NCBI RefSeq assembly: GCF_002709775.1
Contig: NZ_PAQR01000027.1
Coordinates: forward strand, 1 to 64,000
DNA from: Thalassospira sp.
Lineage (GTDB): Bacteria; Pseudomonadota; Alphaproteobacteria; Rhodospirillales; Thalassospiraceae
Length of the DNA stretch: 64,000 bases
Direction: 5' to 3'
The notes beneath the pieces were generated by a model. It had not been told where the DNA came from. It searched no databases and was given only the letters and a program-made list of their open reading frames with translations. Position numbers and translations under genes: made by a program. The first letter of the stretch is position 1; every line of letters starts with the position of its first letter. Of this stretch, positions 3,537 to 29,260 are shown piece by piece.

Positions 3537-3740
3537 CTATTTCAGAAAGACAGCCGAAAGCCCGGTCAGGATCAGCACATAAAGCGCAAGGTCGGTCAGC
3601 GCCGGATGGACGGTCATTTTGTAAAAACCGATCCGCGCCAGACCAAGATGGGTAACCTTCAGGCACCCCCATGCAGCAATTGCCAGAACCAGAAAGGTCG
3701 GGACATACAGGCCGTAAATGTTAAATGTCGGATTGATCAT
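3537..3740 (-). CDS. DUF1656 small membrane protein (AaeX-like)
   Basis: A 67-residue protein with two hydrophobic helices (about residues 8-30 and 43-65), the usual form of DUF1656/AaeX proteins, which almost always sit between a FUSC pump and an HlyD adaptor. Its ATG overlaps the FUSC stop as ATGA, so the two are translationally coupled. The precise role is unknown; it probably accompanies the pump in the inner membrane. Confidence 0.9.
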   Translation of the reverse strand: MINPTFNIYGLYVPTFLVLAIAAWGCLKVTHLGLARIGFYKMTVHPALTDLALYVLILTGLSAVFLK

Positions 3741-5830
3741 GCTGTTTCTCCCATGATCGTCGGCTGGGCCGGCAAGATGCCGCCACCCGTTTGTGTCTGC
3801 AGGCGCGGTGCGCCTGTTTTGGAAAGATTGCGGCGAAGCGCGACCAATGGCACCAGAAGCCGTTCGCGATCAGAACCCTCGGGGTCGGCCACCACCAACC
3901 GCAAAAGGTTGTCGACCTCCTCGACGATCCACGGATCAGGCAAGCGGTCCGGATCAATCAGGCGGGCCTCGAAATGCCGCGCGATGGACCGCAAAAGGAC
4001 CTTGATGCGATTGGCAACCGGCTTGCTGGTAAACAGCGTCGCATTGCGCAAATCATAAAGGCAGGACGCAATCGTTGCTTCGGGCATGACCCGGATCAAT
4101 GTATCGCGATGCTGCGGCGCCATGGCCAAACGCGGCAGGATAAGTCCCTGGCGATCCAGCAACCGGCGCACAAGGATCAGACGCCCATGGGCAAAGGATC
4201 CACGCGCAATCGCGGCAATATCCCGCCAGTTGGCCCGAACCAGACGCATGATCGATCGATCTGCTGGCACCACCCGGATAAAGGCGGTTGCAATTATCGC
4301 CGCACCAAAGCCCGCTAGCGATGCAACACCGCCGCCCAGAATGGTCTCGATATCGCTGCTATAGGTCGTATCAAGGTTGAGGATCATGACAAGGTTGACC
4401 ACCATCGCCAGACCAAAGCCATACGTCGCCTGCGAGGTCATCAACACACCCAGCAAGATGCAATAAGGCGCAAATGACAGGGCAAGCAACGGGAAACCAT
4501 CGATACCCGGCAGGATCGTCAGGTTGTAGAAAACAACCGCCCCAACAGCCATCGTGGTGTAACGGATAAAGCCCTTGAGTGCTGGCACCGGGTTATCAAG
4601 AAACGACATGATCGAACTGCCAACCGCTGCCATCATCGCCGCCGTGCCGCCTGCGGGCCATCCGGAAATAATCCAGAAGGCACACACCGCACTGATCGCG
4701 ACTGCTGCGGCAATACCACTGCGCACCGCGCCATTGGCATCACGGTCCATGGCTTCCGACCCGGCGGTTGCCTGCCAGCGGTTCAAAACGTCACTGGGTG
4801 CGGAACCCGCACGAATGCCATCCCACAGAACCCGGCAATCATGATGGAAATCAAGCAACCGGTGCAGCCGATCACACAGATTAACCATCAAAAGCCCACC
4901 CCAGTCAGATGACTGGTCGATCTGATCGCGAAACGCGGTCACACGGTCATGCAGGCTGCATGTCAGGTCCGGGTCATGGGCGTCGCGATTGACGTGATCG
5001 ATGATGTCATCACAAAGTGCGCGCAGTTCGGGCGGCAAGGTAACACCCTCTGCCGCAAGCGCCGTCAAACGGTCATGGACCGCATAACAAACCGGCAACA
5101 GGGACGCCATCGCACTTTGCAGCGCCTGCAATTCGCGTGTCCGCCCGGAAAAGCGCGACTTCTCATAGCCCAGATGCAAGGCCATGCCGTGCAACTCACC
5201 AAGGTCGGCGGCAATGCGCGCCCGGTCACGGTCCAGCTGATCGGCATCCATGCCCGCATCAAAGCTTTCCGTGACCAGCTTGGCGACATCCGCCATCCAG
5301 CCGTTGATTTGTGATGCGATCACCGGGCCGATATGGCGCGGCAAAATGATATGCCCGACCAGTGTGGCACAGAGAATACCCACCGTGATTTCCTGACAAC
5401 GCGCAATCGCGGTCGGAAAGACCGACAGCGGATCGGTCACACTCGGAAAGCCGATCAGGGCCACAGTGTACCCCGCCAGCATCAGAACATAACTGCGCGG
5501 TGTACGATCAAGCCGTGCGAAGAACAGGCAAACGCCAACCCAGACGGCCAGAACAGCACTCAGCACGACCGGCGCATTGACCAGATTGGGCACCAGAATG
5601 ATCGCGACCACCGCACCAAGCAAGGTGCCCAGCACGCGATAAACTGCCTTGGATGCCAGAACACCGGAAAACGGATGGGCCACGATATAAACCGTCGCCA
5701 TCGACCAGACCGGGCGATCAAGATCAAAGGCCAGCGCAATATAAAGCGCCAACATCGATGCCCCGAATGTCTTGATCGAAAAGATCCAGTCTCCGGCTTT
5801 CGGCCGAAGGGCGAGAATATTTTGCAACAT
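3737..5830 (-). CDS. FUSC/AaeB-family aromatic acid exporter
   Basis: A 697-residue inner-membrane transporter of the FUSC family. It has the duplicated layout expected: an N-terminal bundle of hydrophobic helices (about 20-170), a soluble helical region, and a second bundle (about 370-520) with a C-terminal cytosolic part. The N-terminal RPVWSMATVYIVAHP and the central GWPAGGTAAMMAA segments are typical of AaeB-like pumps for p-hydroxybenzoate and related acids. It starts 15 bases after the MarR stop and overlaps DUF1656 by 4 bases. The substrate is unknown; regulation is probably by the adjacent MarR. Confidence 0.9.
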   Translation of the reverse strand: MLQNILALRPKAGDWIFSIKTFGASMLALYIALAFDLDRPVWSMATVYIVAHPFSGVLASKAVYRVLGTLLGAVVAIILVPNLVNAPVVLSAVLAVWVGVCLFFARLDRTPRSYVLMLAGYTVALIGFPSVTDPLSVFPTAIARCQEITVGILCATLVGHIILPRHIGPVIASQINGWMADVAKLVTESFDAGMDADQLDRDRARIAADLGELHGMALHLGYEKSRFSGRTRELQALQSAMASLLPVCYAVHDRLTALAAEGVTLPPELRALCDDIIDHVNRDAHDPDLTCSLHDRVTAFRDQIDQSSDWGGLLMVNLCDRLHRLLDFHHDCRVLWDGIRAGSAPSDVLNRWQATAGSEAMDRDANGAVRSGIAAAVAISAVCAFWIISGWPAGGTAAMMAAVGSSIMSFLDNPVPALKGFIRYTTMAVGAVVFYNLTILPGIDGFPLLALSFAPYCILLGVLMTSQATYGFGLAMVVNLVMILNLDTTYSSDIETILGGGVASLAGFGAAIIATAFIRVVPADRSIMRLVRANWRDIAAIARGSFAHGRLILVRRLLDRQGLILPRLAMAPQHRDTLIRVMPEATIASCLYDLRNATLFTSKPVANRIKVLLRSIARHFEARLIDPDRLPDPWIVEEVDNLLRLVVADPEGSDRERLLVPLVALRRNLSKTGAPRLQTQTGGGILPAQPTIMGETA

Positions 5831-23758: not shown

Positions 23759-24050
23759 TGCCACTCTTCCCCTGCCCTTACCCCAACCCGGGATGCGGAC
23801 AGAACAGATACCTTACGCTTAGGTGTAGTAAATCTAGACGAATTCCACACTTAGGAATAGGTCTAAACCGGTTTATGTAAAATTCAGCCCGGGAAATACA
23901 CGCCAAAATGGCGAGGGACCGGCCGTTTCCAGCCAGTCCCCCTGTATGTATTTCTTTGTGAAGCGGGTTGCTACGCACCGACATGAACAAAATTCACATC
24001 GTTCCCCGGCGAAGCCACCCACTTATTTCCCGCAAACAAGCGGGGCAGAA

Positions 24051-25832
24051 TTACGCCGAACGGCGTTTCATGCCCTGATTGCCACCGCGGTTGTCGCGGC
24101 GCGGACGATCATTGAAGTCACGACGGCCGCCATCGCGTCCACCGTCACGGTTGTCGCCACGGGCACGGAAGTTGCCGCCGCGATCACCACGCGGTTTGTC
24201 CGAGAAGCGACGTTCGTCACGGTTGCCACCTTCGCCACGGCCTTCACCACGGGGGCGGAAGTTACCACCACGACCGCCACCATTGCGCTCTTCGCGATCA
24301 CCGCGCGGTGCACGGTCATCATTGTCAAAGCGCGGCTTGCGATCATTGCGGAAATCACCGCCGTCACGACGCGGACGATCATTGAAGTCACGACGACCGC
24401 CATCACGGCCACCATCACGACCTTCTTCACGACCACCGAAGCCACGGGCTGCGCGATCACCCTGGAAACCGCCATCGCGGCCACCATCACGACCGCCGCC
24501 GAAGCCACGACCGCGACCACCGTCACGATTGTCACCACGGGCGCCATCACGACCGCCACCGAAACCACCACGGCCCCGGCCACCATCACGGCCGCCAAAA
24601 CCACCGCGACCGCCGCCGCCGAAGCCACGACCACCGTCACGGCCACCACGACCGCGACCACCGCCACCACCGGCACCGAATGAACGGGGCGGCGGAGCTG
24701 CATGGAATTCGTGATCTTCGTCGATCTCGACATCCTGCTTGATGATGCGTTCAATGTTGCGCAGCAGACGAATGTCGCGCGGTTCACAGAACGAAATCGC
24801 GATACCTTCGGCACTGCCACGACCGGTACGACCGATACGGTGGACATAGCTTTCCGGGTCCTGCGGCAGGTCATAGTTGATGACGTGCGTGATGCCCGGG
24901 ACGTCGATACCACGTGCAGCAACGTCGGTTGCAATCAGGACCGGGAAACGGCCATTGCGGAAGTTGCGCAGGATTTTCTGACGGATGCGCTGCTGTTTGT
25001 CGCCATGAATGGCATCGCTGTCGATGTCTTCATCGCGCAGCTGGAACGACAGTTCGTCGGCATCTGCCTTGGTCTTGGTGAAGACCAGAACGCGTTCGAC
25101 TTCATCACGGTTGAGCAACTGAACCAGAAGCTTGGTCTTGTCGTGACGTTTGACAAACATGCCACGCTGGGTGACGCGTTCGGTCACGCTGGCCTGCGGT
25201 GCGGTTTCAACCTTGACCGGGTCTTTGAGAAGACGGTCGGTCAGGTGTTTGACTTCGGCCGGCATGGTTGCCGAGAACATCACGGTCTGATGATTGTTCG
25301 GCAGCAGTTCCGCCACGGTCAGCACGTCTTCGGAGAAGCCCATGTCGAGCATGCGGTCGGCTTCATCAAGGATGAAGACTTCGACATCGTCGAAACGAAC
25401 CGTGTTGCGCGACATGTGATCGAGCAGACGACCCGGGGTCGCAACCAGGATATCAACGCCACGGCGCAGTTCCTGAATCTGCGGGCCCATCGGGGAGCCA
25501 CCAAAGACAACAGAAGAAAACAGGCGGATGCCTTTTTTGAAATCACGCAGGCACTGGCCGATCTGGGTCGCCAGTTCGCGGGTCGGTGCCAGAATGACGG
25601 CACGCGGCTGACCCGGTTTCGGGCGCATCGGGTTTTCAGCAAGACGCTGCAGCAACGGCAGGCAGAAAGCAGCAGTTTTGCCGCCACCCGTATGGGAAAT
25701 ACCCATCAGGTCCTTGCCTTCGAGAAGTGCGGGGATCGTCGCAGCCTGAATTTCGGTCGGCGCGGTAAAACCGGCAGCTTCAACATTGCGCAACAGGGGC
25801 TCGATCAGGTTGAGCCCATTAAAATTCGTCAT
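24051..25832 (-). CDS. DEAD-box RNA helicase with RGG-rich tail
   Basis: A 593-residue RhlE-like helicase. Core motifs are in order: Walker A HTGGGKT, PTRELATQ, TPGRLLDH, LDEADRMLDMGF, SATMP, ARGIDVPG and HRIGRTGR, with the core ending near residue 375. The remaining 200 or so residues are almost wholly Gly, Arg, Asp and Phe, a low-complexity RGG tail expected to bind RNA and perhaps phase-separate. Walker A has TGGGKT where TGSGKT is commoner. AAGGA lies 9 bases before the ATG. The 381-base upstream gap would allow a long leader, as is common for cold-inducible helicases. Confidence 0.95.
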   Translation of the reverse strand: MTNFNGLNLIEPLLRNVEAAGFTAPTEIQAATIPALLEGKDLMGISHTGGGKTAAFCLPLLQRLAENPMRPKPGQPRAVILAPTRELATQIGQCLRDFKKGIRLFSSVVFGGSPMGPQIQELRRGVDILVATPGRLLDHMSRNTVRFDDVEVFILDEADRMLDMGFSEDVLTVAELLPNNHQTVMFSATMPAEVKHLTDRLLKDPVKVETAPQASVTERVTQRGMFVKRHDKTKLLVQLLNRDEVERVLVFTKTKADADELSFQLRDEDIDSDAIHGDKQQRIRQKILRNFRNGRFPVLIATDVAARGIDVPGITHVINYDLPQDPESYVHRIGRTGRGSAEGIAISFCEPRDIRLLRNIERIIKQDVEIDEDHEFHAAPPPRSFGAGGGGGRGRGGRDGGRGFGGGGRGGFGGRDGGRGRGGFGGGRDGARGDNRDGGRGRGFGGGRDGGRDGGFQGDRAARGFGGREEGRDGGRDGGRRDFNDRPRRDGGDFRNDRKPRFDNDDRAPRGDREERNGGGRGGNFRPRGEGRGEGGNRDERRFSDKPRGDRGGNFRARGDNRDGGRDGGRRDFNDRPRRDNRGGNQGMKRRSA

Positions 25833-26213
25833 AAAGGAAAGTCCTTCGTTTATCCGGTCGGCGCCATGTTCACGCCTGTGGTGCCTGCCCAAACGCAGTC
25901 AAGACCGGTGCTTGGCAAAGAGCCAGCGTCGGACCCGCATGAGAGGCAAATGATGTGAGGCATCGACGTCATCACGTCGTACCCGCCCTCGCCTTTTCAT
26001 ACAGTTCCTGACAGCTCATTCTGTCTTTGCAAGCGAAGGAATGAGCCGGGTGATACAGGGCGGCGCACAATAAGTCAATCAATCCCCGCGCCCATCAGCC
26101 ATGCAAAAACGCCTTCCGCCCATGCACACGACGAAAGTTTCTTTTTAAATTAACCCTTTAGGACCAGTATCGCGTGTACGGAGTGGAGAACTGCATTTTA
26201 GAAGGGGAATTCC
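25833..26213. other. Divergent intergenic region between helicase and chemoreceptor
   Basis: 381 bases without a gene. It must contain the promoters of the DEAD-box helicase (leftward) and the chemoreceptor (rightward). A strong AAGGGGAATTCC ribosome site precedes the chemoreceptor ATG. I see no consensus promoter, terminator or repeat that I can place with confidence. Confidence 0.4.
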
Positions 26214-26719
26214 ATGCGGTTTCGCGTTGTAACGGGGATTTTTTCAATCCCTGCTATCTGTCTGGTTGTGTTGCTTGCAATCATCGCGACAGTGTCCTTG
26301 AACTATCAAACCAGTCTGCGTAACGGAAAGTTCGAACAGATTTCGCATCTGACCGAAGGTGCCGTGTCCATCGTCAACAGCTATATCGCCAAAGCCAAAA
26401 GCGGCGAGATGAGCGAGGCCGATGCCAAGGCAGCCGCCCTTGCACTGCTCAACGATTATCGTTTTGACGGTGAGAACTATATTTACGCGACCGATTACAA
26501 TCACTGCATGGTGCTTGATCCGTTGAGCCCCGAAGATGTCGGAAAATGTAATCCTGACAGCCGGGTGCGCAACATGATCGTCAATGCGGCCAAAGCCGGT
26601 GGTGACATTATTACCTATGAAACCAAGAAGCCAGGCGAAGGGGACAAACTGATCGAGAAAGCGGCCTATGTCCGCCCGATCAAGGAATGGAACTGGGCGC
26701 TTGGGGCTGGCGTATACAT
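26214..26719 (+). pseudogene. Chemoreceptor, 5' fragment (membrane segment and sCache sensor domain)
   Basis: The first 169 codons of a methyl-accepting chemotaxis protein. There is one membrane helix (about residues 8-30), then a periplasmic single-Cache domain (FDGENYIYATDYNHCMVLDPL, given as NYIYATDYNHC and MVLDPLSPEDVG), ending at WNWALGAGVY. At this point the IS110 element interrupts it. Translation runs on into the element for 17 more codons to a stop at 26771. The missing part resumes at 28096. As it stands the product would be a membrane-anchored sensor without a signalling domain. Confidence 0.9.
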
Positions 26720-26726
26720 GATGGTG

Positions 26727-26736
26727 TGGACGGCCC
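26727..26736 (+). repeat. IS left subterminal inverted repeat
   Basis: TGGACGGCCC, a perfect inverted match to 28082-28091. Extending outward adds GTG here against GTA in the partner, so a 13-base repeat with one mismatch is also possible. Confidence 0.85.
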
Positions 26737-26806
26737 TCACAAACCGGCATCAATGTGCCATAGTGCGTTGATCAGTTGGGCAAACACTATAAGGAGCCAT
26801 CCACAG

Positions 26807-27832
26807 ATGAAAGTTAGCACGCTCGGCCTGGATTTGGCCAAGAATGTCTTCCAGATTCACGGTGTCGACGACAAAGGGAACGTGACAGTTCGTCGCCAGT
26901 TGCGTCGTCAGCAAATGTTTTCATTCTTCTCGGATCTCCCTCCCTGTCTGATCGGCCTTGAAGCCTGTGGCACTGCCCATTACTGGGCCCGGGAGCTCGA
27001 AGCGCGCGGGCACGATGTCCGGATCATCCCGCCATCCTATGTGAAACCGTATGTTCGTCGCGGCAAGAACGACGCAGCTGATGCCGAAGCGATCTGTGAG
27101 GCTGTCGGTCGACCGAGCATGCGCTTTGTGCCGGTCAAATCGGAAGACCAGCAGGCCGCCCTGATGCAGCACAAGGCCCGCGAGCTTCTGATGCGCCAGC
27201 AAAACATGTTGGTCAACGCACTGCGTTCCCACATGGCCGAAATGGGGCTGATTGCCGCCCAGGGCCGAGAACGACTGGACCGTATTGTTGATGTCATCAT
27301 GGAAGACGAGGATGAAAGCCTGCCGGCATTGGCTCGCGCATCACTACGGCCACTGGTTGCCATGCTCCAGGCCAATGAAGCTGCTATCGATGACATAGAC
27401 CGGGCAATCAAGGCAGCCCACAAGGAAAATGAGGTTAGCCAGCGATTGGCCTCCATACCTGGTGTCGGCGTTCTGACTGCCAGTGCGATCGCAGCCACAG
27501 TGCCTGATCCTTCGTTCTTCAAATCCGGTAGGGAGTTTGCTGCATGGCTCGGTCTGGTACCGCGACAAAATTCCAGTGGCGGTAAGGAACGATTGGGCCG
27601 GATATCGAAACAGGGCAACCGGTATATTCGAAAGCTGCTTGTCATAGGTGCTACCAGCATGCTGAACGTTGTGCGCCGACAATCATCACGGCAGGCTGAT
27701 TGGGCGAAACGGTTACTGGAACGTAAGCCGACAAGGCTTGTAACCATCGCCATGGCCAACAAAGCCGCGCGTATCGCTTGGGCTTTAATGACCAAAAAGG
27801 AAATATATCGGGCAACAACGATTGCGGCATAG
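26807..27832 (+). CDS. IS110-family transposase (DEDD recombinase)
   Basis: A 341-residue recombinase. The N-terminal RuvC-like domain shows D9 (GLDLAKN), E52 (GLEACGT), D89 and D92 (KNDAADAEAI), the DEDD set. The C-terminal transposase domain has the helix-hairpin-helix-like IPGVGVLTASAIAA, then LVPRQNSSGGKERLGRISKQGN, the region holding the conserved catalytic Ser. The start is the ATG at 26807, with AAGGAG 10 bases upstream; the longer in-frame extension reads back into the host gene. IS110 enzymes recombine without a classical DDE step, guided by an element-encoded bridge RNA. The frame is intact, so it may be active. Confidence 0.95.
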   Translation: MKVSTLGLDLAKNVFQIHGVDDKGNVTVRRQLRRQQMFSFFSDLPPCLIGLEACGTAHYWARELEARGHDVRIIPPSYVKPYVRRGKNDAADAEAICEAVGRPSMRFVPVKSEDQQAALMQHKARELLMRQQNMLVNALRSHMAEMGLIAAQGRERLDRIVDVIMEDEDESLPALARASLRPLVAMLQANEAAIDDIDRAIKAAHKENEVSQRLASIPGVGVLTASAIAATVPDPSFFKSGREFAAWLGLVPRQNSSGGKERLGRISKQGNRYIRKLLVIGATSMLNVVRRQSSRQADWAKRLLERKPTRLVTIAMANKAARIAWALMTKKEIYRATTIAA

Positions 27833-27840
27833 AACACACC

Positions 27841-28080
27841 GTTTTTAGATCCCAAGGGATTACAACAGGTTAGCAAGGTGAGCAGATATTGATGTGAACC
27901 GGTCACTACCGGGATATCGGACACTCCAGCACTTTCCAAGCGGCCACTTGACCGCGTTTATTTGATCGGAACCGACATCCGCGGACTTCATCAGGGCCAG
28001 ACGATTTATCGTCACCAACAGGCCGGATACATGGAAGCACCTGACCAGGTTACAACAGTTCTATTTTTCCTTGCTTTCAG
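27841..28080 (+). ncRNA. Candidate bridge RNA in the IS right end
   Basis: In IS1111-type elements the bridge RNA is known to lie downstream of the transposase. This non-coding stretch contains several hairpins: CCGGT-CACT-ACCGG (27899-27912), GCGG-N8-CCGC (27940-27955) and GACGA-TTTA-TCGTC (28000-28013). A 9-base direct repeat, TTACAACAG, occurs at 27860-27868 and 28050-28058. ATACATG at 28027-28033 matches both the left target flank and the right element end, as a guide strand might, though a 7-base match is weak. RNA limits and loops are not established. Confidence 0.4.
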
Positions 28081-28081
28081 T

Positions 28082-28091
28082 GGGCCGTCCA
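28082..28091 (+). repeat. IS right subterminal inverted repeat
   Basis: GGGCCGTCCA, the exact reverse complement of 26727-26736. Only a few bases separate it from the resumed chemoreceptor frame at 28096-28097. Confidence 0.85.
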
Positions 28092-28095
28092 TACA

Positions 28096-29260
28096 TGATG
28101 ATGTTCAGTCCGAATTCATGTCGGTCATCACCCATATCGTGATCATTTCCGCCATCGCCATCGTGATTGCAGGCATCCTGTCCTGGATCGTCGGCACACG
28201 GATTACGCGCGGTATTGTTGGCCTGAATGACAGCATCCGTGCAATTGCCGAGGGCGATTACAACGAACCCGTCGAAACCGATTCCCGATTTATTGAAATC
28301 GGCGATATGGGCGAAGGTGTTCTGGCGCTGCGTGACAAATCGGCACAGGCCCAGCAGCTTGAAAATGATGCAGCGGGCCTCAAGGCAAAATCCGAAGAAG
28401 AACGCCGTGCGAATATCCGCGAAATCGCGTCCAAGCTTGAATCCGAAGTCGGCGGCATTGCCGGTGCCCTGGATCAATCGGTTCAGCGCAGTAATGATCT
28501 TGCGATCAGCATGGCGCGCAATGCCGATGGCATTCTGGGCCAAAGCCAGCATGCCGCGTCAGCCGCCAACGAAGTATCGCACAGCGTTGATGCGGTTGCG
28601 GCCGCGACCGAGGAACTGTCATCCTCGATCACGGAAATCAATGTTCAGATTTCCCAGATGTCGAACACGGTCGAACGGGCAACCGATGAAAGCCAGAGCG
28701 CATCGAATGATGTTGCCGGCTTGTCCGCCACGGTCGACAAGATCAAGGAAATCATCGGCCTGATCAACGACATTGCTGCTCAGACCAATCTTTTGGCACT
28801 GAACGCGACCATCGAGGCGGCCCGTGCCGGTGAAGCTGGCAAAGGCTTTGCCGTGGTGGCCAACGAGGTGAAAAACCTTGCCACCCAGACGGCAAAGGCA
28901 ACTGACGAGATCGCAGCCCAGATCAATGACATTGTCGATGGCACCGAACGTGCCGTAACCGGCATTTCGCGGGTTTCGGAAACCATCGAACAGGTTCGAG
29001 GGGCTTCGACTGCGATTGCAGCGGCGATTGAAGAACAGGGTGCGGCAACACAGGAAATCTCGGGCAACGCCAACCGCAGTGCGGACGGGGTCAAGGAGAT
29101 CTCCAACAGTGTTGAAGACACCATGAACAACGCCCAGAGCACGACACAGGAAGCAGATGAACTGAAATCAGCATCGGCCGAACTTTCAAGCCGTTCGAGC
29201 GAGCTGACCCAGATCATTCATCGTTTCTCGACCGACTTGCTGAAGCAGGCCGGGGCGTAA
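28096..29260 (+). pseudogene. Chemoreceptor, 3' fragment (membrane helix, HAMP, signalling domain)
   Basis: The continuation of the interrupted chemoreceptor, about 388 codons. It begins DDVQSEF, followed by the second membrane helix ([21 protein letters not shown]), a HAMP domain ([19 protein letters not shown]) and the MA signalling hairpin with the conserved tip [22 protein letters not shown]. The open frame extends upstream into the IS, where no ribosome site is seen, so expression is doubtful. The reading frame itself is undamaged. Together with the 5' fragment it would give a receptor of about 557 residues. Confidence 0.9.

What the first reader, a model, noticed from the sequence alone, without database searches (positions are those of the whole stretch)
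27833..28095. Candidate bridge RNA in the right end of the element
IS110-family elements encode a bridge RNA that specifies target and donor; in the IS1111 subgroup it lies 3' of the transposase. Here the 263-base right end is long, has at least three hairpins and a 9-base direct repeat (TTACAACAG) near both ends, while the left end is only 87 bases. If functional, this would be a new natural programmable recombination system with a chemoreceptor target.
Basis: partly seen in the sequence, partly recalled or inferred. Interest (0 to 1): 0.75.

Follow-up and report, generated by a model that had tools for sequence, protein, structure and literature searches.

The report
Guide RNA of an IS1111-type transposon
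The right end of this bacterial jumping gene encodes a guide RNA of a kind described in 2024; unusually, this copy sits in a chemoreceptor gene at a spot that resembles the jumping gene's own ends, not the target its guide spells out.

Summary
In detail: 27833-28095 runs exactly from the transposase stop to the element's right terminus. It carries a structured RNA (27888-28048): 22 consensus pairs, 17 with double changes, over 47 sequences, and a covariance-model hit just downstream of the transposase in 80 of 80 related loci. Its internal loop tracks each element's own insertion site: left guide 4.26/6 and right guide 5.91/7, against 1.78 and 3.94 for swapped pairs, repeated in 12 held-out elements. 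It is a bridge RNA / seekRNA of the IS1111 group: a new member of a known kind. The 9-base direct repeat is probably chance. The chemoreceptor is probably not the programmed target. The guide spells TTTATT-TG-GAAAGTG, close to the site of a sister copy in another genome, and matches its own site 7/13, tied lowest of 70. That site fits the RNA's donor loop 11/13; it is the only one of 83 loci where the donor loop beats the target loop. I read it as a natural donor-mimic off-target insertion, a class reported for IS621 in the laboratory. No transcript was tested.

The parts
26721..28095 (+). IS110-family, IS1111-group insertion sequence (1375 bp without the shared TG; one TG at each junction, 26719-26720 and 28096-28097)
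   Evidence: Sister copies L083/L086 are 91% identical up to these ends; empty sites in relatives
26719..26720 (+). left copy of core dinucleotide TG
   Evidence: 2-bp overlap of both junctions of L086 with its empty site L129
26727..26736 (+). left subterminal inverted repeat TGGACGGCCC
26807..27832 (+). transposase, 341 aa; D9/E52/D89/D92 conserved (catalytic role by analogy to IS621) and GLVPRQNSSG motif
   Evidence: Pfam DEDD_Tnp_IS110 and Transposase_20; NCBIfam NF033542 'IS110 family RNA-guided transposase' 348.5 bits, cut-off 140; conservation over 67 proteins
27888..28048 (+). bridge RNA / seekRNA (extent of the covariance model; true 5' and 3' ends unknown)
27917..27975 (+). target-binding stem-loop: outer stem 27917-27920/27972-27975 and 27925-27927/27968-27970, inner hairpin 27940-27943/27952-27955, guides in the two strands of the internal loop
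   Evidence: window positions read off alignment A1 by me
27930..27936 (+). right-target guide CACTTTC (pairs with top strand; predicts target +1..+7 GAAAGTG; register one base off that of the majority of homologues, chosen as best fit to the sister sites)
   Evidence: antisense covariation with flank +1..+7 (printed positions there are one too high); 5.91/7 own vs 3.94 swapped over 46 clusters
27957..27964 (+). left-target guide TTTATT plus core TG (same sense as target -6..-1 and core)
   Evidence: top 5 of 6888 sense cells, Z 6.0-8.5; 4.26/6 own vs 1.78 swapped over 46 clusters
27989..27993 (+). CATCA, complementary to the IS left end TG-ATG: likely second donor guide (too conserved for a covariation test)
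   Evidence: direct complementarity; scored
27995..28024 (+). donor-module stems GGCC/GGCC (27995-27998/28021-28024) and GACG/CGTC (28000-28003/28010-28013)
28028..28033 (+). donor guide TACATG, identical to the IS right terminus plus core (28092-28097)
   Evidence: 5.80/6 own vs 4.93 swapped over 46 clusters, 0 of 20000 permutations
28034..28035 (+). GA: handshake-guide-like bases that track target +1/+2
   Evidence: 35 of 46 and 30 of 46 clusters match, 0 of 20000 permutations each; held-out 8 of 12 each, 2073 and 237 of 20000 permutations
28082..28091 (+). right subterminal inverted repeat GGGCCGTCCA
28096..28097 (+). right copy of core dinucleotide TG
26214..26720 (+). 5' part of the interrupted chemoreceptor gene (sCache_2 domain)
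   Evidence: uninterrupted 556-aa homologue in L089
28098..29260 (+). 3' part of the interrupted chemoreceptor gene (MCPsignal; HAMP below its Pfam cut-off, 22.1 of 25 bits)

Best explanation
The right end encodes the bridge RNA (seekRNA) of an IS1111-group insertion sequence. Shown by comparison: a two-module RNA. The first module is a stem-loop whose internal loop holds a right-target guide on its 5' strand and a left-target guide plus core TG on its 3' strand. The second module holds a donor guide identical to the element's right terminus plus core, followed by one or two bases that track the target's right side. Inferred from IS621 and ISEc11: the transposase binds the RNA, aligns target and abutted element ends on these loops, cuts beside the core and exchanges strands, inserting the element without added bases. 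This copy's guide spells TTTATT-TG-GAAAGTG. It nevertheless lies in a chemoreceptor gene at ATACA-TG-ATGATG (as found), which matches the donor loop and the element's own abutted ends far better than the target guide. I infer that the chemoreceptor insertion was an off-target event in which the donor loop captured a donor-like chromosomal site. RNA identity: about 0.95. Donor-mimic reading of the site: about 0.7.
For: Transposase family. Structure: 17 of 22 pairs with double changes, 0 of 500 shuffles reach any of five measures, slid controls far lower. Model R1 hits 46-142 bases downstream of the transposase match in 80 of 80 loci (44 of them used to build it; L038 cut by the contig end). In the 29 genus genomes its 5 hits all lie beside the 5 full-length transposase matches. 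Unbiased scan of RNA columns against flank positions: the top 5 of 6888 sense cells lie on one diagonal. Permutations over 46 clusters: left guide 0 of 20000, right guide 0 of 3000, donor guide 0 of 20000. Held-out elements, n = 12: 4.67/6 vs 1.44, 5.08/7 vs 3.62, 5.58/6 vs 4.54, 0 of 5000 permutations each. Natural reprogramming inside one genome (Tropicimonas L003, L007, L059, L024): right guides change with right flanks. Empty sites. Site anomaly: 7/13 to the target guide, while the unoccupied own-genome homologue of the sister's site scores 10/13; 11/13 to the donor loop, the only one of 83 loci with donor loop above target loop, one other tied; edit distance to the own donor junction 1 as found and 2 on the relatives' form of the site, against 4-7 in 82 others.
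Against: No transcript, protein-RNA binding or transposition was tested. The single-sequence fold is not exceptional. Permutations do not fully remove shared ancestry, although clusters at 85% and a held-out set were used; the scan also has stray off-diagonal cells up to Z 5.0. Two of the six pairs of helix 1 do not form in this element (read from A1). The held-out handshake test is weak (+1: 2073 of 20000). Donor-mimic reading: one event, noticed after the fact; a random TG-core site of independent bases lies within edit distance 2 in 198 of 200000 and within 1 in 2 of 200000 draws, but this understates chance here because donor-like 13-mers are common in this genome (142 with at most 2 mismatches against 7 for the reversed pattern); the right flank is one base shorter than in the relatives read, so the pre-insertion site is not certain; scored on relative L089's site the target guide reaches 8/13.
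Confidence: 0.88

Rival explanations
1. The RNA is real, but the chemoreceptor site is an ordinary low-stringency target chosen by the target loop; its likeness to the element's ends is coincidence.
For: Two other loci have equally low target-guide scores (L037, L048: 7/13); the core TG is shared; scored on relative L089's site the guide reaches 8/13; donor-like 13-mers are common in this genome (142 against 7 for the reversed pattern).
Against: Donor-loop score 11/13 against a mean of 5.06 on the sites of 83 loci, and edit distance 1-2 against at least 4 in 82 other loci.
Confidence: 0.25
2. The guide changed after insertion: the element once carried a guide fitting the chemoreceptor site.
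For: Right-target guides differ between the window copy and its sisters, and guides change within one genome.
Against: The left guide TTTATT is the same in the window copy and in both 91%-identical G004 copies, whose left flanks fit it 6/6 and 5/6, while the window flank fits 3/6; the chemoreceptor site was without the element in the 18 of 28 genus relatives whose site was printed in the right orientation.
Confidence: 0.07
3. The right end is only a conserved DNA end (protein-binding sites, transcription terminator) and no guide RNA is made.
For: No transcript data; single-sequence fold near shuffles; no sigma-70-like promoter or terminator found by consensus scan of 26600-28200.
Against: Compensatory pairs and loop-to-flank tracking have no evident reason to exist without a base-pairing RNA.
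Confidence: 0.03

Closest known systems
seekRNA of IS1111-family elements ISEc11, ISKpn4, ISPa11, ISPst6 (PMC11187229)
   Same: Downstream non-coding region, subterminal inverted repeats, transposase of 330-350 aa, top-strand guide 5' of bottom-strand guide, natural retargeting by guide replacement
   Different: Different target and RNA sequence; expression not shown here; the donor guide and handshake-like bases read here were not described in the parts of that paper I read; no direct sequence comparison with ISEc11 was made
Bridge RNA of IS621 (IS110 group; PMC11208160, PMC11208158)
   Same: Two modules with target- and donor-binding loops, guides for both strands, core dinucleotide, donor-like off-target insertions, handshake guides
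   Different: IS621 RNA lies in the left end; guide order is reversed in the IS110 family per PMC11187229; core CT instead of TG; inverted repeats of 2-3 bp
ISCro4 transposase (PDB 9t56)
   Same: Best sequence match among solved structures, E 4.9e-9; IS621 8wt6 second, E 6.2e-8
   Different: Mainly the C-terminal part aligns (query 212-329); RNA not compared

Membership tests
IS1111 group of the IS110 family | DEDD transposase with IS110-type C-terminal domain, about 330-350 aa, GL-P----S(T)G motif | tested here: met
   341 aa; PF01548, PF02371; NF033542 348.5 bits; D9 E52 D89 D92 conserved and GLVPRQNSSG present
IS1111 group of the IS110 family | subterminal inverted repeats of 7-17 bp | tested here: met
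   10 bp perfect; 74 of 85 loci passed my repeat finder, at least two of these mis-anchored
IS1111 group of the IS110 family | long non-coding region downstream of the transposase gene | tested here: met
   right end 263 nt, left end 86 nt
IS1111 group of the IS110 family | insertion without added bases | tested here: met
   L086 against empty site L129: exact, sharing TG. L083 differs from its relatives' site by substitution, and the window copy is one base shorter at the right junction than the relatives read
IS1111 bridge RNA / seekRNA | conserved structured RNA in the right end | tested here: met
[quoted passage not shown]
   At family level; the window copy's own site fits poorly, 7/13
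IS1111 bridge RNA / seekRNA | donor-matching segment | tested here: met
   held out
IS1111 bridge RNA / seekRNA | RNA co-purifies with transposase and is needed for circle formation and transposition | not testable with these tools
   needs experiment
IS1111 bridge RNA / seekRNA | promoter formed at the circle junction | tested here: inconclusive
   Abutted ends give TTGCTT-17-CATGAT, only 3 of 6 in the first hexamer; 44 of 70 loci have TTG 16-18 nt before that hexamer
Known Rfam RNA families | match to an Rfam 15 model | tested here: not met
   No gathering-level match in the element; best weak hit in 27800-28130 an unrelated snoRNA at E 0.41

The most novel reading that the evidence does not exclude
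[quoted passage not shown] The family also carries handshake-type bases linking donor loop and target.
Probability: 0.4. Interest if true: 0.55.

Novelty: new member of a known kind. Interest (0 to 1): 0.42.

Why it matters
It adds a comparatively validated IS1111 bridge RNA clade with readable target, donor and probable handshake positions; this element had no Rfam 15 match. It also gives a candidate natural case of donor-mimic insertion, which PMC11208160 reports for IS621 as low-frequency laboratory off-targets. If confirmed, that bears on the specificity of bridge recombinases as tools and on how such elements reach new genes.

Tried and rejected
Direct repeat TTACAACAG as a functional feature: rejected. 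Rfam: nothing. DNA search of the right end across 385 genomes of the class gave, besides the own genome, only weak partial matches in 10 genomes, best E 5.1e-8; the covariance model was more sensitive (60 of 385 genomes, own included). Promoter/terminator scan of 26600-28200: none. A first donor-guide test used columns one base off and scored 0.17/6; it was redone with corrected columns. One search prints window positions one too high, and one search prints the abutted ends shifted by one base; the positions in this report were checked. One search printed the chemoreceptor site correctly for 18 of 28 relatives; the ten minus-strand rows show the wrong stretch.

Rows dropped before counts: of 85 loci, 11 had no clear inverted repeat pair, L010, L018 and L022 were mis-anchored or masked, and L023 was mis-anchored, leaving 70 in 46 clusters. 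For eight loci (L052, L055, L060, L068, L069, L071, L073, L075) the anchor was shifted by hand so that the core reads TG. Of 29 new loci (30 were returned, one the window itself), 16 had no repeat pair with TGGA by my finder and one was over 85% identical to a used sequence, leaving 12, of which L181 is probably mis-anchored but was kept. Counts over 83 loci are the 70 plus 13.

Papers: PMC11187229: outline and abstract, parts 1-2 of 4 of Results, sections 12 and 13; PMC11208160: section 12 and passages; PMC11208158: passages. All other papers: listings only.

Full report
What was checked. The stretch 27833-28095 begins right after the stop of a 341-aa IS110-type transposase (26807-27832) and ends at the last base of the element before a TG dinucleotide shared by both junctions. 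Subterminal inverted repeats TGGACGGCCC / GGGCCGTCCA lie at 26727-26736 and 28082-28091. The same repeat geometry recurs in related loci: 74 of 85 loci passed my repeat finder; leaving out mis-anchored L010 and L018, left ends are 60-83 and right ends 238-311 bases, measured to the repeat. Two 91%-identical copies occur in one other genome of the genus (G004). Empty sites in further relatives fix the ends: for copy L086 the flanks overlap by exactly TG, with no other duplication.

Structure. I aligned 47 right ends (one per cluster at 85% identity, plus L086). RNAalifold gives 22 pairs in 5 helices, 17 with compensatory double changes. Counted with controls, 95.4% of cells pair against 83.5% in shuffles, covariation score 0.399 against 0.165, 0 of 500 shuffles reaching any measure, and slid versions have at most 41.5% paired cells. 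A covariance model from this alignment hits 46-142 bases downstream of the transposase match in 80 of 80 loci, of which 44 were in the model, with the window at 115.4 bits. In 29 genomes of the genus it finds five places, all beside the five full-length transposase matches; the sixth match there, truncated L084, has none. No Rfam family covers it. By itself the window sequence does not fold unusually well.

Guides. Without choosing segments beforehand, I compared every right-end column with every flank position over 46 clusters. The five highest of 6888 sense cells form one diagonal: window 27958-27962 against target -5 to -1 (Z 6.0 to 8.5). In the antisense scan the three highest cells and 11 of the top 25 fall in 27930-27937 against target +1 to +7. 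Stray off-diagonal cells reach Z 5.0, as expected from shared ancestry (printed coordinates there are one too high). Own left-guide matches average 4.26 of 6 against 1.78 for swapped pairs (0 of 20000 permutations), and own right-guide matches, best register in the loop, 5.91 of 7 against 3.94 (0 of 3000). The donor guide 28028-28033 matches the element's own right terminus plus core 5.80 of 6 against 4.93 (0 of 20000). In 12 held-out elements found through the RNA model, the same columns give 4.67 vs 1.44, 5.08 vs 3.62 and 5.58 vs 4.54, 0 of 5000 permutations each. In one Tropicimonas genome, related copies carry different right guides that follow their right flanks: GGTGCTGTC with ACAGCACC (L003), GGTGGTGTC with ACACCACC (L007, L059), GGTCTTGTC with ACAAGACC (L024). 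Bases 28034-28035, just after the donor guide, track target +1/+2 in 35 and 30 of 46 clusters (0 of 20000 each); the held-out test of +1 is not significant (2073 of 20000) and of +2 modest (237 of 20000). These resemble the handshake guides of IS621 (passages of PMC11208158).

How it works. By analogy to ISEc11 (PMC11187229) and IS621 (PMC11208160, PMC11208158), the transposase carries the RNA, one loop reads the target, the other reads the abutted element ends, and strands are exchanged next to the core. The anatomy and the base-pair tracking are shown here; transcription, binding and catalysis are inferred.

The chemoreceptor site. The window copy splits a gene that is uninterrupted in the relative L089 (556 aa). 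Its guide spells TTTATT-TG-GAAAGTG (right half in a register one base off the majority of homologues). This matches the site of G004 copy L086 at 5/6 and 6/7 and the unoccupied homologue of that site in its own genome at 4/6 and 6/7, but its own site only at 3/6 and 4/7, tied lowest of 70 with L037 and L048; on relative L089's site it reaches 4/6 and 4/7. Its flanks instead read ATACA-TG-ATGATG, against ATACA-TG-ATGGTG for its own abutted ends: 10 of 11 flank bases identical, where 69 other loci reach at most 5. Allowing gaps, the edit distance is 1 as found and 2 on the relatives' form of the site, against 4 to 7 in 82 other loci; among 200000 random TG-core sites 2 have distance 1 and 196 distance 2. 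Scored loop against loop, the donor loop fits this site 11 of 13 and the target loop 7 of 13; it is the only one of 83 loci with the donor loop ahead, and L181, probably mis-anchored, is tied. Durrant and colleagues report that some low-frequency IS621 off-target insertions resemble the donor and that some off-targets tolerate an insertion in the target (PMC11208160, passage). The window copy looks like a natural case of the first and perhaps of the second. Against this: it is one event noticed after the fact; donor-like 13-mers are common in this genome (142 with at most two mismatches, against 7 for the reversed pattern), so the random figure understates chance; and the pre-insertion allele is unknown, since the right flank is one base shorter than in the relatives read (18 of 28, three again).

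Verdict. It is a new member of a published kind, not a new system, and the chemoreceptor is probably an accident of donor mimicry and not the programmed target.

Noticed in passing
28096-28110: The right flank of this copy is one base shorter than the relatives' chemoreceptor site at the same place. Register slip at insertion, later deletion, strain allele or assembly error cannot be told apart.
   Followed up: partly
L085 and L087 (genomes G014 and G004): A second IS1111-type element, about 50% identical in transposase, has the same flanks in two genomes of the genus as far as printed (16 and 18 bases); its left guide fits its left flank 6/6 (L085).
   Followed up: partly
L084 (genome G006): Truncated copy of the same transposase (96% identical over residues 11-194), without a guide RNA hit.
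   Followed up: no
L036:3812-3974 (-) beside 3611-3776 (+); L081:5049-5215 (-): Second copies of the guide RNA nearby on the opposite strand.
   Followed up: no
L031, L032, L035, L045, L048, L051, L056, L058, L066: Elements whose right junction has GG where the left has TG, CG or AG, so the core dinucleotide is not always the same at both ends.
   Followed up: no
24051-25892 (-) and 23946-24683, 24702-25958 (+): A gene that by eye looks like a DEAD-box helicase with a long Arg/Gly-rich tail, with long open frames on the opposite strand that are probably chance (no family search made).
   Followed up: no
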